A stretch of DNA of 64,000 nucleotides, taken from contig NZ_NCQY01000002.1 of assembly GCF_002894645.1 (NCBI RefSeq), positions 301,784-365,783 on the forward strand, in the 5' to 3' direction. The position numbers and the translations under genes were made by a program. The stretch is from Salinibacter altiplanensis (GTDB lineage Bacteria > Bacteroidota > Rhodothermia > Rhodothermales > Salinibacteraceae). The notes beneath the pieces are model-generated. The model had not been told where the DNA came from, ran no database searches, and saw only the letters and a list, made by a program, of their open reading frames with translations. This document shows, piece after piece, positions 32,368 to 44,530 of the stretch (positions are counted from its first letter, which is position 1; each line of letters opens with the position of its first letter).

Positions 32368-32639
32368 GTGTCTTCTCTGAAACGTCTGGGGCGTCAACGT
32401 TATGCATTGCTGAGGGATGAACGTGCGGGAAACCGTCGGGCATCGTCAAAGAGATACGGGCAGATCCCTTACGCTTTTCCCAGTTGGATTTCTCGACGAA
32501 AGCGGACGGTCGCGAGGGCTCATGCTGTAATGGGAGAGGGGCTCCGGGGCGCAGTTGTTCTTGGCGGTGCTGCCGCGAGGGAAACCCATGCTGGGGGCGG
32601 CGGCCTGCTTCGGTCGCTTGGCGCCAGAGCAGCAACGCA
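32368..32639. other. Unassigned DNA at the broken end of the permease pseudogene
   Basis: About 270 bases where permease similarity has ended on the minus strand and no other gene begins. The minus frame stays open but its sequence no longer matches permeases, which marks the breakpoint at about 32640. Confidence 0.45.
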
Positions 32640-33431
32640 GCCTAAACCGCATGTTGTCGAGCGACTGGACCCCGAGGCGAAGACCGTCGGTCGCCTCCGG
32701 CCGAGCCCGGTTCTCAAACAGGGTGACCGCTGCGGTGTGGAGGGTGGCGGGCGTCGTGTTGTCGCCGAGCCGCACGTACGTGTGCTGCGTGTAAACTGCT
32801 CCCAGGCGTCCGGGTCGGAGGCGGCGGCGGACTCCTCCGTGGCGAACAGGTACCCGTCCGCCGTCACGTGCGAGGGCCCGTCGGGGGCAGCGAGGACCCC
32901 GACGACGGTGTATGAGGTTTCTCCCTCGTGCTGAAAGGATTTGCCCACGGGGTTCGAGAAGCCAAACAGCTGCCGCGCCGTCTCCGAAGACACGACCGTC
33001 GTGCGGGGGCGCGACCGCGCGTTGCTCTTCGTGCCGGCCTGGAACCGAAAGCCGTCGAAGACCTGTCAGAACGCATCGCTGGTCTCTATGGTCTGGACGG
33101 TCAGGCTCTCGTTCTCGTCCACGATGAAGCTCTCCTCGTCCGGGTCGAGGGAAGCGACCGCGTCGAGGCCCGAAACCGACTCCCGAAGGGCCGTCGGGAG
33201 CGGCTGCGGGACCGTGGCGTGATGATACCCCTCGCTTTGGACCTGCGCGGTGACCCGGTGGATCTTTTCGCTGTCCGAATGAAAGCGGTCCGTCCGCCAT
33301 TGCTGGCGCACAAACAGCAGCACGAGCAGCGCTACGGCGAGGCCAACGGCCAGCCCGATTCCGTTGATGGCAGTGGTGCCCCGGTGCTTCCACAGGGTGC
33401 GAACGGCGGTCTTGAGGTAGCTCTGGATCAT
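32640..33431 (-). pseudogene. Truncated, inactivated FtsX/MacB-type ABC permease (N-terminal part)
   Basis: From ATG 33431 the product matches the N-terminus of the intact permease upstream: ALVLLFVRQQW-type first membrane helix and the start of the periplasmic core domain. A TGA at 33066-33068 stands where the paralogue has tryptophan (SFWQVFDGF versus DAF-stop-QVFDGF), a one-base nonsense change. The same frame then continues through SETARQLFGFSNPVGKSF to DAWEQ, where a one-base deletion shifts the frame (VYTQHTYVRLGDNTTPATL). Similarity ends at about 32640, near the LDNMRF segment, so the second membrane half is missing. Confidence 0.85.
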
Positions 33432-33485: not shown

Positions 33486-35918
33486 TCACTCGTCCCGCAG
33501 CGTGGTCGCCGGGTCAAGGCGGGCGGCCCGAACGGTTTGCATCCCAATCGTGACAAGGCACACCCCGACCACAGCACCGACGCAGAGGACAACGATTCCC
33601 CCTTCCACGTCCACGGCATCCGGCATCCACTGCAGCCACCCGTGATTCACGACCCACGCAATGGGCGTGGTGACGAGAGCCGTGCCAACTAGAAGCACGG
33701 CAAACGGCCACGACAGGTGCACCACGACATCGGTGACACTGGCCCCGAGGGCTTTCCGCACCCCGATTTCTTTTGTGCGGGTCTGCACCTGGTAGGTGGC
33801 TAGGCTCAATAGCCCAAGTGCAGCGATGAGAATCGTGAGGAGGCCGACGCCGCCGGTCAGGTACGCCACATCCTGGAGGGGCCCGTACCGCATCCGCACG
33901 ATGTCGTCGTAGTAGCGAAACTCGAACGGATGTAGTGTGTCGAAGCGCTCCGTCCAGGCGTCCTTCAAATCGCCACGAAGGACTGCCAGATCGTCGCTCC
34001 CCGCCCGAACGAGAGCGTACTTATAGTGTCGCGCGTTGGCATAGAGCATCATGGGACCTTCTGGATCGGCGAGGCCCCCTCCATACACCTCTCCCGTCCC
34101 CGTATACTCAAAGTTGTCGACGACCCCCACGACAGTTCGCCCCACCCCTGACGTCTCCGACCTGTCTTCCGTAATTTCGGCCCCGAGCGCCGCGCTCGGG
34201 CTGTCGAATCCAAGCTTCTCCACAGCCGCCTGGTTGAGAAGAACACCATCCCCTTGTACGTAGGCACGATCCCAGTTCGATACTGACGCCCGAAGGGTCA
34301 GCCCCATGTGAGCAACGAAGCTCGTGTCCACCGCAAATGAGACCGTTTTGATCGGGGTCTCCACGAGACTGGACCGAAGGTATCGAGTGTCATAGCTGCT
34401 GGGACCCAGCATCAGGTTGTTGATCGCCGCCACGTCCTGTACACTTGGCAGATCATCGACTGCGTCTCGAAACGTGTCGTAGGGCACGTCTTGGAGGGCG
34501 ACGCTCGCCACCCGATCCGTGCGAAGTTGATGGTCGGCCGTGGCCATGTGCCATGTCTGACGCAGCATCGTCGTAGCCGTGACCACGAGGAACAGCGTGA
34601 CGGCCACTTGGACTGCGATGAGAGCGCTACGGAGGCGCTGCGAGCCTCCCCCCCTCGACGAATCCCCTTGGGCTCGGAGCGTCTGTGCCGGACGATACGA
34701 CGACAGAACGAACGCCGGATAGGCGCCCGCCAGAAGGCCCACGACCACGCCCGTAAGCGCAATGAGCCCTATGACCGCCGGATCCAACAGCAGGTTCAAA
34801 TCCAGCGGTGGAATCTCCAAGAGGTCCAAGAGATAGAGATTGTTAAAGAGCGGCACAAACCCCCCGAGCAGCATCGTCGCCACAACTGAGGCCGAGAGGG
34901 CCGTCACGATGGCTTCGCCCAAAAACTGACCGACGAGTTGCGACTGCTGAGCCCCGAGGGTCTTCCGCACCCCCACCTCCCGCGCCCGCCGTAGTGATTG
35001 AGCCACCGACAAGCTTACGTAGTTGAATCCCGCAGCAATCAGAAGAACGGCCGCCAGCCCTCCGATAAACCAGAAGGTCCATCCGGAAAGAGTAAGTCGG
35101 CCGGCGATTTCATTCCAGAGGCGCGGCCCAAAGCGAAGGGTCGCGAGGGATTGCACAGAAAGCTGATAGTCCGATGCGTCCTCCGGCTGGGCACCGCGCT
35201 CAAAAAGAATTCCTGCCGTAGCCTCCAAGTCGGACGCAGACGTTCCCTCCGCGAGCCGCACGTACGTCCACTGGGAGTAGACATCCCCCCAGGCATCTGC
35301 GTCTCCCCCAGCAGACGAAGCGTCAGTGAGCGATAGGAACACATCCCCCCCCACATGTGTCGGCCCGTCGGGCGGGGCGAGCACCCCCGTGACGGTATAC
35401 TCCGTCTCCCCTTCGTGCAAAAATGTCCTCCCCACCGGGTTGTCGGTCCCAAAGAGGCGGCGGGCCATTTCTAGGGTCACCACAGCGGTGTGCGGCTGTG
35501 CCAGAAGCCTCTCCCTACTCCCCGCCCGGAGTTGGAACCCGTCGAAGACCTGCCAGAAAGAGGCGTCCACCTTCATCGCCTCCACCCCGAGGCTCGTGTC
35601 CCCCCGCACGACGAACGTGTCGCCGTATTGATCGACGGCCGTAGCGGCGTCAATTCCGGGAGCCGACTCGCGAAGGGCAGTCGGCAGCGGAGTAGGAGCG
35701 GTCGCGAAGTGCGCCCCATCGTTCATCCGGAGGGTCGTGACGCGGTGGATGCGATCCGATGCCGAATGAAAACGATCAATCCGCCACTGCTCTCGAACAA
35801 ACAGCAACACGAGCAGGACCACAGCAAGACTTACAGCCAACCCAAAAATGTTGATGGCCGTGGTACCGCCATTTCGGCGGAGGTTCCGAACGGCAACGGT
35901 CAGAAAGTTGCGAAGCAT
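33486..35918 (-). CDS. ABC transporter permease, FtsX/MacB family (intact)
   Basis: Membrane protein of 810 residues. One N-terminal helix (about 21-41), a MacB-type periplasmic core domain (about 50-260), three helices with the FtsX signature REVGVRKTLGAQQSQL, a second periplasmic domain and a final three-helix unit with KEIGVRKALGASVTDVV ending RAARLDPATTLRDE. It therefore has the duplicated FtsX architecture common in Bacteroidota. With the ATPase and adaptor encoded upstream it should form a MacAB-like mechanotransmission exporter that moves substrates (peptides, antibiotics or lipoproteins) from the periplasm outward. It lies third in coding order after the HlyD adaptor and ABC ATPase, apart from the four-helix protein. 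Confidence 0.9.
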   Translation of the reverse strand: MLRNFLTVAVRNLRRNGGTTAINIFGLAVSLAVVLLVLLFVREQWRIDRFHSASDRIHRVTTLRMNDGAHFATAPTPLPTALRESAPGIDAATAVDQYGDTFVVRGDTSLGVEAMKVDASFWQVFDGFQLRAGSRERLLAQPHTAVVTLEMARRLFGTDNPVGRTFLHEGETEYTVTGVLAPPDGPTHVGGDVFLSLTDASSAGGDADAWGDVYSQWTYVRLAEGTSASDLEATAGILFERGAQPEDASDYQLSVQSLATLRFGPRLWNEIAGRLTLSGWTFWFIGGLAAVLLIAAGFNYVSLSVAQSLRRAREVGVRKTLGAQQSQLVGQFLGEAIVTALSASVVATMLLGGFVPLFNNLYLLDLLEIPPLDLNLLLDPAVIGLIALTGVVVGLLAGAYPAFVLSSYRPAQTLRAQGDSSRGGGSQRLRSALIAVQVAVTLFLVVTATTMLRQTWHMATADHQLRTDRVASVALQDVPYDTFRDAVDDLPSVQDVAAINNLMLGPSSYDTRYLRSSLVETPIKTVSFAVDTSFVAHMGLTLRASVSNWDRAYVQGDGVLLNQAAVEKLGFDSPSAALGAEITEDRSETSGVGRTVVGVVDNFEYTGTGEVYGGGLADPEGPMMLYANARHYKYALVRAGSDDLAVLRGDLKDAWTERFDTLHPFEFRYYDDIVRMRYGPLQDVAYLTGGVGLLTILIAALGLLSLATYQVQTRTKEIGVRKALGASVTDVVVHLSWPFAVLLVGTALVTTPIAWVVNHGWLQWMPDAVDVEGGIVVLCVGAVVGVCLVTIGMQTVRAARLDPATTLRDE

Positions 35919-36041: not shown

Positions 36042-36746
36042 CTACGCCCCAGGGTGCGCGGCGTACTCCTGCTCAATGAAGTTCTCGGAGACGACTTTGC
36101 CGTCGAACAGGTGGATGGTGCGGGCCGAGTACTCGGCGTCGGCGGGGGAGTGGGTCACCATCACAATGGTGGTGCCTGCCTCGTTGAGGTCCGAGAGCAG
36201 CTCCATCACCTGCGCGCCGTTGGTCGAGTCGAGGTTTCCGGTCGGCTCGTCGGCCAGGATGAGCTTCGGGTTGGCCACGACGGCCCGGGCCACGGCCACG
36301 CGCTGCTGCTGGCCGCCGGAGAGCTGTTGGGGAAAGTGGTCGCGGCGGTGGGCGATCTGGACGCGGTCGAGGGCCGCCTCCACGCGCTCATCGCGCTCCG
36401 CCGAGGGGATATCGAGGTAGAGGGGGGGCAGCTCCACGTTCTCGTAGACCGTGAGCTCGTCAATCAGGTTAAAGCTCTGGAAGACGAACCCGATGTTGCC
36501 CTTCCGCAGCTTGGCGCGCTGGCGCTCAGAGTGATCGCCCACTTCCTGCCCGTCGAATGCGTAGCGGCCCTCGGACGGGGTGTCGAGCAGGCCCAGAACA
36601 TTCAGTAGGGTGGACTTCCCGCAGCCGGACGGGCCCATGACGGAGACGAACTCGCCGGCGTCGATCTCGACGTGGACGCCGTTGAGGGCCAAGGTCTCGA
36701 CCTCGTCGGTGCGGTAGACTTTCTTGAGGTTTTCGGTCTGAATCAT
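36042..36746 (-). CDS. ABC transporter ATP-binding protein (MacB/LolD type)
   Basis: Protein of 234 residues. Walker A GPSGCGKST is at 38-46, the ABC signature is LSGGQQQRVAVARA and Walker B LILADEPTGNLD, followed by the H-loop THS. EADAGEFVSVMG-like opening and the TGNLDS motif are typical of the MacB/LolD/FtsE branch, which drives FtsX-type permeases. It is encoded 120 bases before the permease and shares its direction, so the two almost certainly form one transporter. Confidence 0.95.
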   Translation of the reverse strand: MIQTENLKKVYRTDEVETLALNGVHVEIDAGEFVSVMGPSGCGKSTLLNVLGLLDTPSEGRYAFDGQEVGDHSERQRAKLRKGNIGFVFQSFNLIDELTVYENVELPPLYLDIPSAERDERVEAALDRVQIAHRRDHFPQQLSGGQQQRVAVARAVVANPKLILADEPTGNLDSTNGAQVMELLSDLNEAGTTIVMVTHSPADAEYSARTIHLFDGKVVSENFIEQEYAAHPGA

Positions 36747-36824: not shown

Positions 36825-37316
36825 CTATTCCCTTTCAGGTGATGACGAACCGATGTCGACGTGGCGATCGGGGAGGGACCATTCGGGAGTGAATCCCCCG
36901 TCTGTCTCAAAGGGCAAAGTAGGCTCTTTCGCCTCCCCGGAGGAGTTTGGAATCGTACTCCGGACGTGCTTCAAGAGGCTGAGAATCATTCGCTGACAAA
37001 CCTCGCTGTCCTCCTGAATTTCCTCAACCCGTTCACGGTACCCAACGTCCTGATCAAGGACGACATACGACAAACTCTTGACTTCGGCGGCAGAACTCTG
37101 CTCGTAATCCAGGAAGCGGATGAAGTCCTTCTTGTTGTACCGGGCAAATCCTTCGGCGATATTCGACATTGTAGAGACGGCCGCCCCTGTAAGCTGATCG
37201 CGCAGTCGATAGTCGTTGGAGACCCCTGATTCCTTGATCAGGTCATACACCTCACTCGTCAATTCGCGGGCTTTCTTCCAGCATCGGAGGTCCTCGAATC
37301 GCTCAATCTTTGGCAT
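36825..37316 (-). CDS. Four-helix-bundle protein (23S rRNA intervening-sequence type)
   Basis: Protein of 163 residues. Residues 1-118 match the 23S rRNA-intervening-sequence/S23 family: RFEDLRCWKKARELTSEVYDL, DYRLRDQLTGAAVSTMSNIAEGFAR and FIRFLDYEQSSAAEVKS. Family members form pentameric four-helix bundles and often sit alone in bacterial genomes with no clear role. This one has an unusual C-terminal extension of about 45 residues (Pro-, Ser- and Thr-rich) not part of the fold. It is inserted in the export operon between the adaptor and the ATPase genes. Confidence 0.82.
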   Translation of the reverse strand: MPKIERFEDLRCWKKARELTSEVYDLIKESGVSNDYRLRDQLTGAAVSTMSNIAEGFARYNKKDFIRFLDYEQSSAAEVKSLSYVVLDQDVGYRERVEEIQEDSEVCQRMILSLLKHVRSTIPNSSGEAKEPTLPFETDGGFTPEWSLPDRHVDIGSSSPERE

Positions 37317-37387: not shown

Positions 37388-38758
37388 CTATTCCAGTGAG
37401 AGCCGGTCGGCATCCCCGAAGGAATCGTAGCTGCTCGTGATGACCTTGTCGCCGGGCTCCAGCCCGCCGAGCAGCTCGAAGTGGTTGGGGTTCTGGCGGC
37501 CGAGGCGAATGGGCTTTCGGACGGCATCGTCGCCGCTCTCGGTAAGCACGTAGGCCCAGTTGCCCCCGGTGCTCTGGTAGAAGCCGCCGCGGGCGAGGAG
37601 GGTCGCCGCTTTCGGCTGTCCGAGCTCCAGCTTCAGTCGTACGGTCTGCCCCCGGCGCACGGCGGGAGGGGAATCGCTCCCAAATGCCAGATCGACCTCA
37701 AACTGGCCGTTTTCCACCTCCGGATAGACCCGATCGATGGTAAGGGTGTGCGTCGTGTCCCCGAGGGCGTCGGTCGTGGCCGTTTGCCCGTGCCGCACGC
37801 GCTCGATGTAGAACTCGTCGATCTGGGCGCGCAGCTCGTAGCGGCCGATTTTGTCGACCTGACCGACGCGCGTGCCGGCGCCGATGATCTGCCCGAGCTC
37901 CGCGTTGAGCGAGGTCACCTGGCCGTCGATGGGAGCCTGTACCGTGAGGCTCTGGACGGCCTCCTGTATCGTCTCGTAGCGATCGTCGAGCCGCTGCTGC
38001 TGACTGCGCTGCTGGTCGAGCCGAGTCTGGTACGTGAGCGAGTCCTGCCGGTAGGCCGAACGGGTGAGCGCCAGCCGCCGCCGCTGGTATTGCAGGTCGT
38101 CTCGAGTCTGCTCGAACTGTTGGTCCGCGATCAGGTCCTGCTCGTGGAGCTGCTTTTGGCGTCGGTGCTGCCGCTCCAGTTGCCGGACCTGATTCCGGAT
38201 CTGTGCCAGGTCCCGCTGCAACCCGAGTCGCCGTTGCTCCATGTCCATCCGAATCTGCTGCATGCGGCTCCGTTGCTCGGAAAGCCGGGCCTCCGTGCGG
38301 GCCAGTTGGAGGCGCAGGTCGTTGTTCGAGAGCCGCAGGATGGGCTCTCCTTTCTCAACCATCGTCCCTTCTTCGAGGTAAATCTCCTCGACCCGCCCCC
38401 CCTCCACGGCCCCGAGATACACGGTCTGCTCCGGAACGGCCGTGCCCGTGACGGCGATAAATTCCTGAAAGTCGTCCTGTTGCACTGTCGAGACCGTTAC
38501 CTTGTCGCGGTCTACGTTGTAGACTTGCCCGCCCGTGGCGGTCGTCCACACGCCATACGCCAGCGCCCCAAGGGCCAGCACCACCGCCACACCGATCCCG
38601 ATGCGCCGGGGCGTGAAGAGGGACGTCTCAATCTTCCGGTCGATGCCTTCCCCCGTGCCTCCGGAGGAGTGTGGACCGCCGCCTATCAGGGGAGAGCCGG
38701 ACGAGGACGATTCATCGGAAGAGGCGCCGTTGGTGGACGTGGAGTCCTGAGGAACCAT
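37388..38758 (-). CDS. HlyD/MacA-type periplasmic adaptor of the ABC exporter
   Basis: Protein of 456 residues from ATG 38758 (an upstream in-frame start at 38782 overlaps the leader). A Ser/Gly-rich cytoplasmic tail is followed by one membrane helix (about residues 55-73), a lipoyl half motif GRVEEIYLEEGTMVEKGEPILRL, a long coiled-coil hairpin rich in Gln/Arg (about 140-265), the second lipoyl half QAPIDGQVTSLNAELGQII and beta-barrel domains. This is the membrane-fusion protein that links the inner-membrane ABC transporter to an outer-membrane channel. It is first in the operon and directly downstream of the sigma-54 promoter. Confidence 0.9.
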   Translation of the reverse strand: MVPQDSTSTNGASSDESSSSGSPLIGGGPHSSGGTGEGIDRKIETSLFTPRRIGIGVAVVLALGALAYGVWTTATGGQVYNVDRDKVTVSTVQQDDFQEFIAVTGTAVPEQTVYLGAVEGGRVEEIYLEEGTMVEKGEPILRLSNNDLRLQLARTEARLSEQRSRMQQIRMDMEQRRLGLQRDLAQIRNQVRQLERQHRRQKQLHEQDLIADQQFEQTRDDLQYQRRRLALTRSAYRQDSLTYQTRLDQQRSQQQRLDDRYETIQEAVQSLTVQAPIDGQVTSLNAELGQIIGAGTRVGQVDKIGRYELRAQIDEFYIERVRHGQTATTDALGDTTHTLTIDRVYPEVENGQFEVDLAFGSDSPPAVRRGQTVRLKLELGQPKAATLLARGGFYQSTGGNWAYVLTESGDDAVRKPIRLGRQNPNHFELLGGLEPGDKVITSSYDSFGDADRLSLE

Positions 38759-38820
38759 AAATGCAAAAGGGGTGGGCGACACACAATGCTACGGGCAGGC
38801 ATCACTGCAAGAACATGCCG

Positions 38821-38836
38821 TGCAACGGACGTTCCA
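38821..38836 (-). promoter_or_regulatory. Sigma-54 (RpoN) promoter of the export operon
   Basis: On the minus strand TGGAACG-TCCG-TTGCA matches the consensus TGGCACG-N4-TTGCW at every defined base but one, with GG and GC correctly ten bases apart. Start of transcription is expected near 38811, about 50 bases before the adaptor ATG. The adjacent divergent gene encodes a sigma-54 activator, which supports the call. Confidence 0.82.
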
Positions 38837-38889
38837 CCACTGGCAGGTGGCCTCTGGCGCCGAGAATCGACGATGGGAACGGGGGCAGT

Positions 38890-38903
38890 GTGCGGATCCG
38901 CAC
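38890..38903. promoter_or_regulatory. Perfect palindrome, candidate upstream activator site
   Basis: GTGCGGATCCGCAC is a perfect 14-base palindrome centred about 75 bases upstream of the -12 element of the sigma-54 promoter, the distance expected for an NtrC-type enhancer site. It also lies before the activator gene itself and could serve autoregulation. Confidence 0.55.
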
Positions 38904-39041
38904 GGCTGGATGTGCGCAATCGCCCGTTGGTCGACGGGGCCCCACTGTCGAGGGGGACGAAAAGAGAAACCATCTGCGGGCCGCTGCGCTTCACAGATCA
39001 TGGCCCCCAATGCACTCCTACACTCACGTCTCGGCGTCTCC

Positions 39042-40469
39042 ATGCCTGCCCCCGCCGCGTCCGCCCTCACCAAGACCGACGGTCGGGTTCTCGTCGTCGA
39101 CGACAACCGGGATGTGCTCACGGCGCTTCGGCTTCTGCTCAAAGAGCACGTGGGCGCGGTCCATACGACCATCGATCCGTCGTCCATCCCGTCGCTCCTC
39201 CGTGACAACGAGTACGACACGATCCTGCTGGACATGAACTTCCAGCAGGACGCCTCCAGCGGGCGGGAGGGCTTCGAGTGGCTCGACACAATTCAGGAGA
39301 TCGATCCGCAGGCCGTGGTCGTCATGATCACGGCCTACGGCGACGTGGAGAAGGCTGTGCGCGCCATGAAGGCCGGGGCCGCGGACTTCATCGTGAAGCC
39401 GTGGACCGACCCGGAGCTGGTGGCCAGCGTGCAGGCGGCGATCAAACTGCATCAGACCCGTGCGGTGGCGGAGTCGAGGAACGCCGCCCGGGATGCCGGG
39501 CCCGATGTGTCCACGGAGGTGGGAGAGGAGTCGCCCGGGTTCGAAGGAATTGTGGGGTCGAGTGCCGAGATGCAGTCGGTCTTCGATCTCATTGAGAAGG
39601 TGGCCGCGACGGAGGCCAACGTGCTTATCCTCGGGGAGAACGGCACGGGGAAAGAGCTCGTGGCCCGTGCGGTGCATCGTCGCTCCGAGCGAGACGACGC
39701 GAGATTTGTGACGGCGGACCTCGGGGCCCTCCGTTCGTCCCTCTTCGAGAGCGAGCTGTTCGGGCACGTGGAGGGAGCCTTTACCGGGGCCGATGCGGAC
39801 CGGACCGGGCGGGTTGAGGCAGCGGATGGGGGGACGCTCTTTCTCGACGAGATTGGCAACATTCCGATGGAGCTGCAGAAGAAGCTCCTTACCGTGCTGC
39901 AGCGCCGCGAGGTGACGCGCGTGGGGGACGTGGAGGCGCGGCCCGTCGACATCCGGCTGGTGTGCGCCACGAACCAGCCGATTTACGACGCAATGGACGA
40001 CGGCGATTTCCGGCAAGACCTCCTGTTCCGCATCAATACGGTCGAGATTGAGCTTCCGCCGCTGCGCGAGCGGGGCGATGACGTGGGGCTCCTGGCACGG
40101 CATTTCCTCACCGAATATGCCGACAAGTACGACGCCGCGACGACCGGCTTTACCGACGAGGCGCGCTCGGCCCTGCAGCAGTACCACTGGCCCGGCAACG
40201 TGCGGGAGCTGAAGCACACCGTGGAACGGGCCGTCATCCTCAGCGAGTCCTCCGAAATTATCCCCGATGACCTCCGCTTCTCAGCCCCTTCGCCCGAATC
40301 GTCGTCCGAGTCCGACGACGCCTTCGAGAGCCTCGACCTCGACGACCTGGAGCAGAAGGCCGTCCGGCAGGCGCTCAGCAAGCACGGCGGCAACGTGAGC
40401 CAGGCCGCCGAGGAGCTGGGCATCTCCCGCCGCGCCCTCTACCGCCGGATTGAGAAGTACGGATTGTAA
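39042..40469 (+). CDS. NtrC-family sigma-54-dependent response regulator
   Basis: Protein of 475 residues from ATG 39042 (ATG 39000 is an alternative). The receiver domain has the phosphorylated aspartate D64 (TILLDMNF) and lysine in FIVKPW. The AAA+ domain has Walker A GENGTGKE (198-205), the sigma-54 contact loop GAFTGA (245-250), Walker B GGTLFLDE (263-270) and the R-finger region. A Fis-type helix-turn-helix ends the protein (GGNVSQAAEELGISRRALYRRI). It is therefore a complete two-component activator of RpoN promoters. The divergent export operon carries such a promoter, so it is its probable target. The histidine kinase follows. Confidence 0.95.
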   Translation: MPAPAASALTKTDGRVLVVDDNRDVLTALRLLLKEHVGAVHTTIDPSSIPSLLRDNEYDTILLDMNFQQDASSGREGFEWLDTIQEIDPQAVVVMITAYGDVEKAVRAMKAGAADFIVKPWTDPELVASVQAAIKLHQTRAVAESRNAARDAGPDVSTEVGEESPGFEGIVGSSAEMQSVFDLIEKVAATEANVLILGENGTGKELVARAVHRRSERDDARFVTADLGALRSSLFESELFGHVEGAFTGADADRTGRVEAADGGTLFLDEIGNIPMELQKKLLTVLQRREVTRVGDVEARPVDIRLVCATNQPIYDAMDDGDFRQDLLFRINTVEIELPPLRERGDDVGLLARHFLTEYADKYDAATTGFTDEARSALQQYHWPGNVRELKHTVERAVILSESSEIIPDDLRFSAPSPESSSESDDAFESLDLDDLEQKAVRQALSKHGGNVSQAAEELGISRRALYRRIEKYGL

Positions 40470-40557: not shown

Positions 40558-41907
40558 ATGCACAGGCGCTTCCGCGTACAGGTGGCCTTCCGAGTCGCGG
40601 TAATCGCGGCCCTCGTGGCGGGGGCGGCGTACCTTGTGCTGGGCCTGCGGCTCTACCTGCCCGGGGGGCTTTTGGGGGCGTGTGCCATCCCCGTTGCCGT
40701 CTCGCTGGTGCGCTACGTCGAGAAGACCACGCGCGACCTCACTCGTTTTTTGGAGTCGGTGCGCTACGCGGACTTTACCCGCCGGTTCACGACCGACGGG
40801 CGGGGGCCCGTCTTCGAGGACCTGCGCGATGCCTTTGAGGATGTGACGGCCGAGTTTCGGCGGCTGCGGGCGGAAAAGGAACGGCAGGTGCAGTACCTAC
40901 AGCAGGTGGTACAGCACCTCGGGGTGGCCCTCATCACGTATCAGGACGACGGGGAGGTGGAGACGATGAACACGGCCGCCCGGCGTCTCCTCCGCACCGG
41001 TCCCATCCGGCACGTGGAGGCGCTGGAGCGGGTGAGCGACGAGCTGGCCGAGACGCTCCGTACGCTCGACTCCGGCGAGCAGGCCATGGTGCGGGTCGAG
41101 GAGGAGGACCGGACGCTTCAGCTGGCCGTCCGGGTGAGCCGGTTTCAGCTTCAGGGAGAGCCCCACGCCCTCGCCTCGATCCAGGACCTGCGTAACGAGC
41201 TGGAGGAGAAGGAGATGGAGGCGTGGCAGCAGCTGACGAGCGTGCTCACCCACGAGATCATGAACTCGGTGGCCCCGATCTCGTCGCTCGCCTCCACTGC
41301 CTCCCGCCGCCTCCGGGTCGGTGAGAGAAACGGCACGATTAGTGCCGACCAGGCCACCGATGCCCGAGAGGCGGTCAACACGATCGAGCGGCGCAGCGAG
41401 GGCCTCATGAACTTCGTCGACGCCTACCGAAGCTTCACCGACATCCCGGCGCCCGAGTTTGAAGTGCTTGATGCAGAGGGGCTCCTCTCCGATGTGGAGG
41501 ACCTGCTGCGTGCCCAGATCGAAGAGCAGAACCTCGCGGTTGCGGTCTCGGTCGCCCCCTCCGGACTTACCCTTTCCGCGGATCCAGACCTGCTGGACCA
41601 GTTGCTCATCAACCTGGCGCTAAACGCTGTGCAGGCCCTCGAAGAAGACCCTGGAACTGGTCAGGGCCGGATCGAGCTCCGCGCGTTCGTCGACCGACGG
41701 AGTCGCCCCGTGATCCAGGTAGAGGACAATGGCCCCGGCATTCCCGACGACGTGCAGGAGAAGATCTTCGTTCCGTTCTTCACCACGAAGGAGGAGGGGT
41801 CTGGGATTGGCCTCAGCCTGTCGCGCCAGATCATGCGCCTGCACGGCGGCCGTCTCTCGGTCCGCTCGACGGAGGGGGACGGGGCCGTGTTTACCCTCCG
41901 ATTTTAG
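40558..41907 (+). CDS. Sensor histidine kinase (NtrY/NtrB-like)
   Basis: Protein of 449 residues from ATG 40558; an upstream start at 40450 overlaps the regulator gene and gives atypical sequence. Two membrane helices at the N-terminus (about 8-28 and 33-52) with hardly any loop between them, a HAMP-like segment, a PAS-like region (residues about 110-205), the phospho-accepting histidine H232 in LTHEIMNSVAPI, and the ATP domain with NLALNAVQAL, DNGPGIP and GSGIGLSL. With almost no periplasmic domain it probably senses a membrane or cytoplasmic signal. It should phosphorylate the sigma-54 regulator encoded just upstream. Confidence 0.92.
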   Translation: MHRRFRVQVAFRVAVIAALVAGAAYLVLGLRLYLPGGLLGACAIPVAVSLVRYVEKTTRDLTRFLESVRYADFTRRFTTDGRGPVFEDLRDAFEDVTAEFRRLRAEKERQVQYLQQVVQHLGVALITYQDDGEVETMNTAARRLLRTGPIRHVEALERVSDELAETLRTLDSGEQAMVRVEEEDRTLQLAVRVSRFQLQGEPHALASIQDLRNELEEKEMEAWQQLTSVLTHEIMNSVAPISSLASTASRRLRVGERNGTISADQATDAREAVNTIERRSEGLMNFVDAYRSFTDIPAPEFEVLDAEGLLSDVEDLLRAQIEEQNLAVAVSVAPSGLTLSADPDLLDQLLINLALNAVQALEEDPGTGQGRIELRAFVDRRSRPVIQVEDNGPGIPDDVQEKIFVPFFTTKEEGSGIGLSLSRQIMRLHGGRLSVRSTEGDGAVFTLRF

Positions 41908-42004: not shown

Positions 42005-43432
42005 TCACGCGCTGCCCACCGCCGCCTCCCGGTTTCGTCGGCTGATGAGCTTCCACTGCTCCGTCTGGAAGCGGTAGTAGATGACCGCGGCGGGCACGGC
42101 CGTCTCGGCGAACAGGGTGCCGTAGAGCCCCCAGATGCCGAACGACGTGACGGCCCCGAGGTAGGCCAGGGGGAGGGCGAAGACGAAGAGGCCCAATAGC
42201 TGGCCGTAGAAGGGCCATGTGGTGTCGCCACTGGCGCGGAGCGGTCCCATTGCGCCATTCATGACGCCCCAACACAGCACGCTCACACAGGCGGCCCGGA
42301 TGAGGGCCGTCGTGGGGGCCTGCACGGCGCCGTCGGCGACGAAGAGGGCACTGATCGGATCGGCCACAATGAAGACGGCGGCTCCGACCAGGGCATAGGT
42401 CGCGACGGTGAAGCGAAGGGTGTCGCGGGCGTAGCCGTCGGCGTCCTGCTCGTGGCCCGCGCCGAGCGACTGGCCGACGAGGCTGCTGGAGGCGAGCCCG
42501 AAGCCCCACCCGGGTGTGTTCATGAGGGCGCGGACGCGGAGCGCGACCACGAAGGCGGCCACCATGTTGGGCCCGTAGAGGCCCACGATGGCGAGCAGGG
42601 GAAACTGGCCGCCGTTCTGAGCGACCTTCCGCAGGGCGAGGGGGGTCGAGATGCGAGCGAGGTGACGGGCGTCCGCCGCGTCCCAGTAGGGCGCGGACCA
42701 GTTGATCTGGACGGGCAGGGAACCCACAACCGGAAGGCGCCCTGCGGTGAGCCCCCATCCGAGGAGAAGCACGCCGCCGATGCTCCCGAGAACCGTGCCC
42801 AGGGCCGCCCCGACCACGCCCAGGTCAAAGACAAAGATAAAGACGGCGTTCAGCCCCACGTTGATCACCGCGCCCCCGGCCCGCACGATCATGGGCGTCC
42901 AGGCATCGTCGGCCCCGATGAGGGTGCGGCTTCCGATCAGGTTGAGGGCCGCGAAGGGCATCGCCAGGCTTGCAACGCGCAGGTAGCGGGTGCCGTACTG
43001 GATGGCTTCCTCGCCCGTCCCGATGAGGCGAATGAGCGGCTCCGGAAGCGTCCAGAACACGAGGACGAGGGGCAATGTCACCAGGAGGGCGGCCCCCACG
43101 CTCACCTTCACCGCCCGGTCGATGTCGTCGTGCCGCCCGGCCCCGTACCGCTGCGAGACGAGGCTGATCGTTCCGCCGGCGATGCCGCCCCCGAGCATGT
43201 ACGTCATCGTCCAGTAGGGCACCCCGTAGCCCACCCCCGCGATGGCCGCCGGGCCCACGGTCATCCCCACCATCGCTACGTCGGCCGTTGCCTTCGACAT
43301 GCGCGCCAGGCCTGTCAGGATGCGGGGCCAGGCCAGGTCCGCAATCCGCTTCGCCCGCGAGGCCGCGATGAGTTGCCAATGGGCGAGGAGGCGCCCGATG
43401 CCCTCGACGGTGGCGCGGATGGGATTTGGCAC
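42005..43432 (-). CDS. MATE-family efflux transporter
   Basis: Protein of about 475 residues from GTG 43432; the frame is open to 43543, but the extra 37 residues are not typical. About twelve hydrophobic helices in two homologous halves, each starting with a motif like ILTGLARMSKATADVAMVG. AGRHDDIDRAVKVSVG and GPNMVAAFVVALRV are MATE-like loops and helices. It should export drugs or metabolites using a Na+ or H+ gradient; Na+ is likely in a halophile but is not visible from sequence. It converges with the histidine kinase and has no partner gene nearby. Confidence 0.87.
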   Translation of the reverse strand: MPNPIRATVEGIGRLLAHWQLIAASRAKRIADLAWPRILTGLARMSKATADVAMVGMTVGPAAIAGVGYGVPYWTMTYMLGGGIAGGTISLVSQRYGAGRHDDIDRAVKVSVGAALLVTLPLVLVFWTLPEPLIRLIGTGEEAIQYGTRYLRVASLAMPFAALNLIGSRTLIGADDAWTPMIVRAGGAVINVGLNAVFIFVFDLGVVGAALGTVLGSIGGVLLLGWGLTAGRLPVVGSLPVQINWSAPYWDAADARHLARISTPLALRKVAQNGGQFPLLAIVGLYGPNMVAAFVVALRVRALMNTPGWGFGLASSSLVGQSLGAGHEQDADGYARDTLRFTVATYALVGAAVFIVADPISALFVADGAVQAPTTALIRAACVSVLCWGVMNGAMGPLRASGDTTWPFYGQLLGLFVFALPLAYLGAVTSFGIWGLYGTLFAETAVPAAVIYYRFQTEQWKLISRRNREAAVGSA

Positions 43433-43753
43433 AGAGACGAATCGGAACGGAAAAACAGCGTGGACGGTCCCAACACCTACACGGATGGCGTGTCGGGGAA
43501 AGGAGGCACTTGTAAGGCAGAGGGGTTGTTCGGGGGAGTCCATCGGAGCGGGGGCTCAGCCCCAGGAATAACTGATTTCTACCATTCCCCTTACGTGCTC
43601 TTGACCTGCGGGCCTGCCGGCGTCCACCGCCCTTGGGCTCGAAACCCCAATCGACGGGAATGTGAGACGAATGAAATTGCCTTCATCAATCGGGAGAGGG
43701 ACGCGTTACGGCACCGCGTCTTGTAGTCTTTGTTTGCTCCAGTGTCCCTCCCA

Positions 43754-44530
43754 ATGCTGCTTTTCTATCTTCTGGCCGCCCTCGCCCTCGTTGTGATTGG
43801 TGCTGTCGTACGCACCTTCAAGGTCGTGAAGGAGTACGAGCGCGGCGTCAAATTTATGCTCGGCCAGTTCGTGAAGGTGATGAAGCCGGGCCTCGGCACG
43901 GTCATCCCACTGATTCAGTCGTGGGAACGGGTCGACATGCGCGTGAAGGCGGTCGACGTGCCGCGGCAGGAGAGCATCACCCGCGACAACGTGACCGTCG
44001 AGATCGACGCCGTCATCTACTACCAGGTGCGGGATGCAGAGAAGGCCATTCTGGAGGTCGAGGAGTACATGTACGCCACGCAGCAGTTGGCACAGACCAC
44101 CATGCGCAACATCGTTGGGGAGGTGGACCTCGACGCGCTGCTGGCCGAGCGGGAGCGCATCTCCCGGCAGATCCGTGAGATTATCGACGAGGCCACCGAC
44201 CCGTGGGGCATCGCGGTGCAGTCGGTGGAGCTCAAAGACATCGTCCTGGCGGAGAACATGAAGCGCGTGATCGCCCGGCAGGCCGAGGCCGAGCGAGAGC
44301 GCCGGGCCGTCACGATTCAGGCGGAGGGCGAGCTGGAGGCGGCCCAAAACATGGCCGATGCGGCCAGCACCCTCAACCAGGAAGAGGGTGCCCTGCACCT
44401 CCGCACGCTGCAAACGCTCAACAGCCTCAGCAGTGACGACTCAAACACCGTCATCTTCGCCGTGCCCACGGAGGCGCTGCGGGCCCTGGAGAAAATTGGG
44501 GCAGATGGGCCGGACGAGAGCAGTCCCTAG
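43754..44530 (+). CDS. Slipin/stomatin-like SPFH-domain membrane protein
   Basis: Protein of 258 residues from ATG 43754. An N-terminal hydrophobic hairpin (2-18) precedes the SPFH/band 7 domain, whose hallmarks are YERGVKFMLGQF, RVDMRVKAVDVPRQESITRDNV, the central EVDLDALLAERERISRQIREII and the coiled-coil QAEAERERRAVTIQAEGELEAAQNM. It oligomerises on the cytoplasmic face of membrane microdomains. Many slipins sit beside an NfeD protease partner; none is encoded here, so this is a stand-alone member. Confidence 0.93.
   Translation: MLLFYLLAALALVVIGAVVRTFKVVKEYERGVKFMLGQFVKVMKPGLGTVIPLIQSWERVDMRVKAVDVPRQESITRDNVTVEIDAVIYYQVRDAEKAILEVEEYMYATQQLAQTTMRNIVGEVDLDALLAERERISRQIREIIDEATDPWGIAVQSVELKDIVLAENMKRVIARQAEAERERRAVTIQAEGELEAAQNMADAASTLNQEEGALHLRTLQTLNSLSSDDSNTVIFAVPTEALRALEKIGADGPDESSP

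What the first reader, a model, noticed from the sequence alone, without database searches (positions are those of the whole stretch)
38821..38836. Sigma-54 promoter driving a MacAB-like export operon next to its own NtrC-type activator
The minus-strand site TGGAACG-N4-TTGCA has all but one of the defined consensus bases and exact GG/GC spacing, and it stands about 50 bases before the HlyD gene. The divergent gene encodes a complete sigma-54 activator with GAFTGA and its histidine kinase. The whole locus (kinase, regulator, adaptor, four-helix protein, ATPase, permease) therefore looks like a self-contained, signal-controlled export system whose signal and cargo are unknown.
Basis: partly seen in the sequence, partly recalled or inferred. 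Interest (0 to 1): 0.75.

Follow-up and report, generated by a model that had tools for sequence, protein, structure and literature searches.

The report
Conserved sigma-54 switch for membrane exporters
A sigma-54-type promoter with a pair of repeat sites upstream stands before an exporter gene set that faces a sensor-and-activator gene pair, and the same promoter-plus-repeats layout, at spacings about one DNA turn apart, precedes matching exporter genes in many other bacteria, so a membrane sensor likely switches the exporter on; what triggers it and what it exports are unknown.

Summary
The site is real: TGGAACG-N4-TTGCA, minus strand 38836..38821, 11 of 12 consensus bases, 62 bases before the adaptor (HlyD) ATG. 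By sequence alone it is not beyond chance (18 near-matches genome-wide, 40 for the reversed control). Context decides. The kinase-regulator pair facing adaptor, ATPase and permease recurs in relatives and other phyla with the promoter in the shared gap (window plus 12 relatives: z 8.7; 41 further loci: z about 12).

Its distance to the promoter is 52 bases here; elsewhere it falls on steps of about one helical turn (41-43, 51-55, 62-67, 73-75). In 13 genomes whose adaptor gene lies apart from the kinase, all 13 adaptor promoters carry both elements, so control likely also acts in trans.

The kinase is predicted to have two membrane helices with almost no external loop. Permeases are far less conserved than the control genes. 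Sigma-54 control of FtsX-type permeases was predicted in 2025; ten searches (listed in the report) showed no description of this activator, enhancer or spacing. No wet-lab evidence; signal and cargo unknown.

The parts
38821..38836 (-). sigma-54-type promoter TGGAACG-N4-TTGCA (-24/-12); predicted transcription start near 38810-38811
   Evidence: Direct reading; a promoter-like box at ladder spacing from the palindromes in 13 of 13 adaptor-regulator gaps, window included; by plain consensus score 8 of the 13 exceed shuffles one by one
38889..38904 (-). proximal half of the predicted enhancer, palindrome CGTGCGGATCCGCACA, 52 bases upstream of the -24 box
38911..38926 (-). distal half of the predicted enhancer, palindrome CGGGCGATTGCGCACA, 22 bases upstream of the proximal one
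   Evidence: the 32-base core 38892-38923 is the only place in the genome matching that fixed-spacing pattern at up to 1 mismatch
37388..38758 (-). HlyD/MacA-type periplasmic adaptor, 456 aa, first gene of the predicted operon
   Evidence: Pfam HlyD_3 64.5 bits; RND_mfp TIGR01730 139.9 bits, cut-off 94.9
36825..37316 (-). four-helix (23S_rRNA_IVP) protein, 163 aa, probably an insertion between adaptor and ATPase
   Evidence: PF05635 90.9 bits; other cassettes carry such ORFs in different gaps and both orientations
36042..36746 (-). ABC ATPase, 234 aa
   Evidence: PF00005; 95% identical to the G004 ortholog
33486..35918 (-). MacB-like duplicated FtsX permease, 810 aa
   Evidence: MacB_PCD and two FtsX stretches; TIGR03434 243.6 bits, below its cut-off 622.3; 58% to a permease of a second operon in G004
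32520..33431 (-). frame-broken remnant of a second permease (pieces 33066-33431 and 32520-32993)
   Evidence: Piece A 75% and piece B 65% (first stretch) identical to the G004 operon-2 permease; described only
39042..40469 (+). NtrC-type sigma-54 activator (receiver, AAA+ with GAFTGA, Fis-type HTH), 475 aa
   Evidence: Response_reg 76.2, Sigma54_activat 219.3, HTH_8 57.3 bits; GAFTGA read in the translation
40558..41907 (+). sensor histidine kinase: two predicted membrane helices with a very short external loop, H-box LTHEIMNS, HATPase_c
   Evidence: HATPase_c 88.2 bits; hydropathy and alignment A1

Best explanation
The site is very likely a working sigma-54 promoter that is predicted to be switched on by the divergently encoded NtrC-type regulator, bound at a tandem palindromic enhancer 52 bases upstream, so that a membrane-embedded kinase would control a MacB-like exporter operon. 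Shown by sequence: the promoter box, the two palindromes, their spacing, the gene order and their recurrence. Inferred: the kinase, predicted to have almost no extracytoplasmic loop, senses a change in the membrane or in the exporter itself and phosphorylates the regulator. The regulator then oligomerises on the two palindromes, reaches sigma-54 polymerase by DNA looping on a fixed helical face, and drives adaptor, ATPase and permease. The exporter would then remove or deliver an envelope-active compound (peptide, lipid or drug-like). In this genome the regulator appears to have one target. In several relatives there are more such sites, most of them before permease or ATPase genes, and the permeases are far less conserved than the control genes.
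For: Promoter score summed over 13 adaptor-regulator gaps (window and 12 relatives): 129 against 106.6 (sd 2.6) in shuffles, maximum 116. 41 further loci: 366 against 313.1 (sd 4.5), with the opposite strand at 313. Enhancer score in the same 41: 643 against 437.6 (sd 5.7). Both elements at a step of the spacing ladder: 13 of 13 and 22 of 41, against 0 of 54 in each of 50 shuffle rounds. Spacing: 63 enhancer-promoter pairs all lie at 41-75 bases although 0-115 were allowed; 62 of 63 fall in 41-43, 51-55, 62-67 or 73-75; period about 11, p at most 0.0005. In trans: 13 of 13 unlinked adaptor genes carry a promoter within 110 bases of the start (0.19 of 13 expected) and a palindrome of at least 9 of 10 (0.10 of 13 expected) at 51, 64, 65 or 71-74 bases from it; the two together at 41-76 bases occur in 13 of 13 and in none of 500 shuffle rounds. 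The three sets share no loci. Further targets in relatives precede permease or ATPase genes. rpoN is present; regulator domains and GAFTGA.
Against: No transcript, binding or mutant data exist here. The bare -24/-12 match is no better than chance genome-wide. Five of the 13 gaps (L064, L065, L068, L069, L070) do not exceed shuffles singly on promoter score. The looser promoter pattern and the ladder classes were set after seeing part of the data. The unlinked adaptors were scored after the pair rule was fixed: that rule called only 3 of 13; the 13 of 13 uses the best single palindrome, a measure added afterwards, and 10 of 13 lie in the preset spacing classes, the other three at 71, one base outside. 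In two of the 14 genomes of that test no regulator was detected beside the kinase (L170, L181), and one genome (L177) gave no adaptor. 19 of 41 named loci failed the joint call. In 34 of 80 named loci no minus-strand transporter gene was detected, some of them on short contigs. G020 has an enhancer-promoter before an ATPase but no detected ortholog of the regulator (88% complete assembly). Two of 12 composite hits (G009, G013:C359) have no transporter gene directly beside them.
Confidence: 0.85

Rival explanations
1. The -24/-12 match is a chance hit and the exporter operon is transcribed by a sigma-70-type promoter.
For: Genome-wide the match is no more frequent than its reversed control (18 against 40), and the window holds fewer than expected.
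Against: Conservation in place, strand and spacing over 13 + 41 + 13 loci that shuffles do not reproduce.
Confidence: 0.04
2. The promoter is sigma-54-dependent but its activator is another of the genome's NtrC-type proteins; the palindromes bind that protein or a repressor.
For: The genome has eight strong Sigma54_activat proteins. G020 has the enhancer but no detected ortholog of this regulator; in L170 and L181 no regulator was detected beside the kinase.
Against: Composite enhancer-promoter sites occur in 5 of the 10 genomes with the ortholog and in 1 of the 15 without it, among the 25 searched. The gene pair keeps its place beside the enhancer across phyla.
Confidence: 0.08
3. The regulator acts mainly on its own kinase-regulator operon, and the exporter promoter is secondary.
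For: In L065, L066 and L067 a sigma-54-like box also faces the regulator gene at 54 or 73 bases, and in L122 at 53.
Against: No such box was called in the window or in the other loci scanned; in the 41 named gaps the exporter-facing strand carries the signal while the opposite strand stays at the shuffle mean.
Confidence: 0.03

Closest known systems
NtrC-type two-component systems with sigma-54 targets (NtrBC, AtoSC, ZraSR, PrsKR)
   Same: Receiver-AAA+-Fis HTH activator with GAFTGA, partner kinase, palindromic upstream sites, -24/-12 promoter (features of the known systems recalled).
   Different: No equivalog cut-off shown is met (best TIGR02915 408.1 against 502.6; AtoC 356.5 against 714; NtrC 339.5 against 558.6, best 25 of 91 families shown); the targets are MacB-like exporters.
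Predicted sigma-54 control of FtsX-type ABC permeases (COG0577) in Bacteroidia, Opitutia and gamma-proteobacteria, PLoS One 2025, PMC12316311
   Same: Same class of target and of promoter; that paper claims the first link between them (passages seen).
   Different: In the passages I saw it gives no activator, kinase or enhancer for these operons; its main text has no word beginning 'Rhodotherm'.
Bce-type modules of Firmicutes (BceRSAB)
   Same: Intramembrane-type kinase paired with an ABC transporter.
   Different: Here the regulator is NtrC-type and sigma-54-dependent, and there is an RND-type adaptor. Whether the transporter does the sensing is untested. Comparison rests on the starts of abstracts in a listing (PMC3023708, PMC10314905) and recall.
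MacAB-TolC and the darobactin exporter DarBCD
   Same: Adaptor, ATPase and FtsX-type permease; an outer-membrane efflux protein follows the ATPase in L140.
   Different: Separate ATPase and a duplicated permease; MacA, MacB and DarB/C/D cut-offs are not met.

Membership tests
sigma-54-dependent promoter | -24 GG and -12 GC in register, near consensus | tested here: met
   11 of 12 defined bases
sigma-54-dependent promoter | rpoN gene in the genome | tested here: met
   One PF04552 match, 194.7 bits
sigma-54-dependent promoter | transcription start about 12 bases downstream, lost without RpoN | not testable with these tools
   No RNA data
NtrC-type enhancer-binding protein | receiver, AAA+ with GAFTGA, Fis-type HTH | tested here: met
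NtrC-type enhancer-binding protein | binds a palindromic upstream enhancer | tested here: inconclusive
   Conserved tandem palindrome with helical spacing; binding itself not tested
NtrC / AtoC / ZraR / PrsR proper | NCBIfam equivalog cut-off | tested here: not met
MacAB | MacA and MacB equivalog cut-offs; ATPase fused to permease | tested here: not met
   MacA 31 of 342; MacB 216.7 (ATPase) and 25.7 (permease) of 966
Darobactin exporter DarBCD | DarB, DarC, DarD cut-offs | tested here: not met
   75.4 of 700, 206.6 of 450, 273.5 of 375
ADOP duplicated permease (TIGR03434) | subfamily cut-off | tested here: not met
   243.6 of 622.3 bits over residues 6-810
Intramembrane-sensing histidine kinase | two membrane helices with a very short extracytoplasmic loop | tested here: met
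   By hydropathy only: of 13 orthologs L068 lacks its start; in 11 of the other 12 a second hydrophobic stretch passes the threshold (L062 by one window), in L064 it does not. Alignment of 11 shows no added loop. Topology not measured
Bce-type module | OmpR-type regulator and BceAB transporter without RND adaptor | tested here: not met
   NtrC-type regulator and RND-type adaptor; definition recalled

The most novel reading that the evidence does not exclude
This is one ancient sigma-54 regulon of Bacteroidota and neighbouring phyla: a loop-less membrane kinase reads envelope damage through the exporter, a sigma-54 counterpart of the Bce modules, and a conserved enhancer cassette that tolerates only whole-turn spacing changes is copied in front of an ever-changing stock of permeases, giving a stable sensor with an evolvable efflux arsenal.
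Probability: 0.3. Interest if true: 0.78.

Novelty: new variant of a known kind. Interest (0 to 1): 0.6.

Why it matters
NtrC-type activators are common outside the Proteobacteria, but their targets there are mostly unknown (general knowledge). Here one activator, its kinase, its likely enhancer and its targets can be named together over several phyla, with a spacing rule that finds the adaptor promoter even when it is unlinked. That makes the signal and cargo of a widespread MacB-like exporter testable with a short list of mutants, and gives a natural series of enhancer-promoter distances for the study of DNA looping.

Tried and rejected
Bare consensus counts were tried first and show no enrichment; they are reported as negative. 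The 32-base enhancer pattern at fixed spacing gave many single hits in relatives, with the reversed control as frequent or more so in several genomes; only hits followed by a promoter-like box were kept. Twelve of the places were fetched; in L095, L097, L099, L100, L102 and L103 the rule called no site, and they were not used as targets. One search scored five loci in the wrong orientation; one search repeats it with these turned round, and only one search is used. A check script found no shared loci between the three sets and added the control for single palindromes. L071 and L075 were left out of the 13-gap test because no adaptor match lay on their short contigs; L142, L148, L167, L183 and L198 have a minus-strand transporter gene but none close enough to the regulator, and were not among the 41 scored of 46. 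The idea that the four-helix protein is a working subunit was weighed and set aside: its ORFs sit in different gaps of the cassette and in both orientations. The idea that the window's permease is a straight ortholog of the permeases behind this ATPase in G004 was rejected: they share 31-37%, while a permease of the next operon shares 58%. Literature searches that listed nothing on this activator or enhancer: (listings only, apart from the papers named in the report).

Full report
Observation. The minus-strand sequence TGGAACGTCCGTTGCA at 38836..38821 is present and agrees with TGGCACGNNNNTTGCW at 11 of 12 defined bases. The adaptor ATG is at 38758; in L062, from a same-genus genome, the 456-aa adaptor likewise starts MVPQ, 60 bases after its promoter. 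The regulator starts at 39042 on the plus strand, so the gap is about 285 bases. As a bare match the site proves nothing: at up to one mismatch the genome has 18 such matches and 40 for the reversed pattern, and at up to two mismatches the window has 5 against 9.3 expected.

Genes. Pfam and NCBIfam name a HlyD/RND-type adaptor, a 23S_rRNA_IVP four-helix protein, an ABC ATPase and an 810-aa permease with MacB_PCD and two FtsX stretches on the minus strand, and a receiver-AAA+-HTH_8 regulator and a HATPase_c kinase on the plus strand. GAFTGA and a Walker A motif are read in the regulator (motif meanings recalled). The genome has one rpoN and 12 Sigma54_activat matches, eight of them strong. By sequence, solved relatives of the permease include MacB and LolC/LolF-type chains, and those of the adaptor include MexJ, MacA and EmrA.

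Relatives. A search of 41 genomes (own included) with the regulator gave full or partial orthologs in 15 (L032-L045, of which L045 is cut by its contig end, and the partial L049), only 3 of them among the 13 genomes of the same genus. Fetched loci show the kinase-regulator pair facing adaptor, ATPase and permeases where the contigs reach. In 13 of the 15 loci (the window and 12 relatives) the adaptor-regulator gap could be read; two were dropped for lack of an adaptor match on the contig. Best promoter scores on the adaptor strand sum to 129 against 106.6 (sd 2.6, maximum 116) in 1000 shuffles; 8 of 13 score at least 10 of 12, against 0.5 on average and at most 4 in shuffles. Singly, L064, L065, L068, L069 and L070 do not exceed shuffles.

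Enhancer. The same gaps carry two tandem 16-base palindromes. In the window these are at 38911-38926 and 38889-38904; the 32-base core matches its pattern without mismatch and is the only place in the genome at up to one mismatch. From the proximal palindrome to the -24 box there are 52 bases here, 51-53 in seven relatives (L062, L063, L065-L069) and 62 in L064; in the more distant L070, L072, L073 and L074 the values are 62, 75, 43 and 66. A composite pattern (palindrome, 45-72 bases, promoter) occurs at 12 places in 25 genomes and once for the reversed control. Nine of the 12 stand before an adaptor, ATPase or permease gene or operon, one before a small ORF at a contig edge (G013:C156), and two (G009, G013:C359) have no transporter gene directly beside them. 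In the own genome a looser composite gave 4 places against 5 for the control; one is the window's own site, and the other three were not followed further.

Further targets in relatives. Besides the adaptor gaps, one search found enhancer-promoter units directly before permease genes in L093, L096, L116 (two) and L117 (two), before ATPase-led operons in L101, L118 and L098 (in L118 and L098 with a short ORF first), and before other genes in L066 (a DUF4097 protein, 23.1 bits, cut-off 22.9), L092 (unknown) and L094 (small ORF). L101 and L118 lie just downstream of the first operon in G004 and G005. The window's permease is 58% identical to the first permease of that second operon in G004 but only 31-37% to the permeases of the first operon, and the frame-broken remnant beside it is 75% identical to the same second-operon permease in its first piece. 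The simplest reading, inferred, is that the window's lineage lost the first permeases, the second enhancer and the second ATPase, leaving a fused operon with a duplicated permease of which one copy has decayed.

Other phyla. 76 of 80 carry a regulator match at more than 45% identity, and 46 of 80 a transporter gene on the minus strand. In 41 of these 46 the gap could be scored (one search names the five others): promoter sum 366 against 313.1 (sd 4.5) in shuffles, opposite strand 313; enhancer sum 643 against 437.6 (sd 5.7). Both elements at ladder spacing: 22 of 41, and 13 of 13 in the first set, against 0 of 54 in each of 50 shuffle rounds. In the named gaps the -12 element is TTGC in 2 of 30 promoter calls (TTGG 8, ATGA 5, TTGA 4, others 11), in the first set in 10 of 13.

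Spacing. Scanning the 80 named loci (2.66 million bases counting both strands) and the window with the relatives' loci (0.90 million) for palindrome pairs followed by a promoter at 0-115 bases gave 34 and 29 pairs. None lies outside 41-75. 62 of 63 fall in 41-43 (5), 51-55 (25), 62-67 (28) or 73-75 (4); one is at 59. The period is about 11, p at most 0.0005 against uniform spacing over the same span. A few pairs are not independent: two share one promoter in L094, and four face the regulator gene (L065, L066, L067, L122). This is what a face-of-the-helix requirement would give; that it reflects DNA looping is inference from the known mechanism of NtrC-type activators.

Test in trans. Fourteen genomes were chosen whose kinase locus, with 10 kb on either side, shows no adaptor: nine with kinase and regulator and no transporter match, L174 with one plus-strand ATPase match, L178 and L180 with a permease (and ATPase in L180) but no adaptor, and L170 and L181 where no regulator was detected either. 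Thirteen have exactly one adaptor match elsewhere, and L177's genome has none; none of the 13 places overlaps a kinase locus. All 13 have a promoter within 110 bases of the start (0.19 of 13 expected) and a palindrome of at least 9 of 10 (0.10 of 13 expected) at 51, 64, 65 or 71-74 bases from it; 10 of 13 lie in the preset spacing classes and three at 71; palindrome and promoter at 41-76 bases together never occurred in 500 shuffle rounds of the 13. The stricter pair rule of 13. The regulator therefore likely acts on this adaptor gene wherever it lies.

Kinase. In 12 of 13 orthologs with a start (all but L068) the N-terminus is a hydrophobic stretch followed closely by a second one, which passes the hydropathy threshold in 11 of the 12 (not in L064, and in L062 by a single window), then a conserved RYVEKTxRDLTRFLES stretch and the H-box LTHEIMNS. 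I see no room for a ligand-binding extracytoplasmic domain. That it senses in or through the membrane is inference by likeness to the kinases of Bce-type modules (starts of abstracts seen in the listing).

Known or new. PLoS One 2025 (PMC12316311; passages seen) predicts sigma-54 control of COG0577 permeases in Bacteroidia, Opitutia and gamma-proteobacteria and calls it the first such evidence. In those passages it names no activator, enhancer or kinase for them. A word search of the main text of the 2011 survey PMC3162934 found no word beginning 'Bacteroid' and no 'ABC transporter'. The listings showed nothing on this system; most subscription papers are outside that library. I therefore rate it a new variant of a known kind: a standard NtrC/sigma-54 switch with a new pairing of loop-less kinase, MacB-like exporter and helical spacing rule.

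Limits. All evidence is sequence comparison. The promoter pattern and ladder classes were shaped on part of the data; the in-trans set is the only one scored after the pair rule was fixed, and there the single-palindrome measure was added afterwards. Shuffle controls do not remove shared ancestry, though the three sets share no loci. Many named loci are metagenome bins, so the phylum of a single locus may be wrong.

Noticed in passing
window 36825-37316; L063, L064, L066, L067, L128, L132, L159: Four-helix (23S_rRNA_IVP) ORFs recur inside this cassette: all 10 ORFs found in the scanned loci by a profile built on five of them lie in its gaps (adaptor-ATPase, regulator-kinase and others), in both orientations. 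The own genome has 5 such matches in all. It looks like a preferred insertion place.
   Followed up: partly
window 32520-33431: Frame-broken remnant of a second MacB-like permease, closest to a permease of a neighbouring operon in a same-genus genome.
   Followed up: yes
L065, L066, L067, L122: A second sigma-54-like box (TGGAAYGCTTTTCGTT type in L066 and L067) faces the regulator gene at 53, 54 or 73 bases from the same enhancer, suggesting autoregulation in some lineages.
   Followed up: no
named loci L122-L201; L214-L226: In the named, mostly Bacteroidota gaps the -12 element of these promoters is rarely TTGC (2 of 30) and more often TTGG, ATGA or TTGA; in the 13 unlinked adaptor promoters it is TTGG in 11. 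A possible lineage shift in sigma-54 recognition.
   Followed up: partly
L094, L098, L101, L118: Several secondary target operons begin with a short ORF having a hydrophobic N-terminus, before the ATPase or at a contig edge; possible cargo or accessory peptide.
   Followed up: no
L146, L153, L154: A further enhancer-promoter unit outside the adaptor gap; in L146 and L153 it precedes a 98-aa ORF, which in L146 lies downstream of the ATPase and is followed by lumazine-binding-like and pentapeptide-repeat proteins.
   Followed up: partly
L173, L177, L184, L188, L189, L191, L194: Where the exporter is not beside the kinase pair, an ORF resembling an FKBP-type isomerase (recalled likeness) faces the regulator in these loci.
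   Followed up: no
window 42005-44530; L063: The MATE-like and band-7-like neighbours of the cassette are conserved next to it in G004 (92% identity); the family names are my own labels.
   Followed up: no
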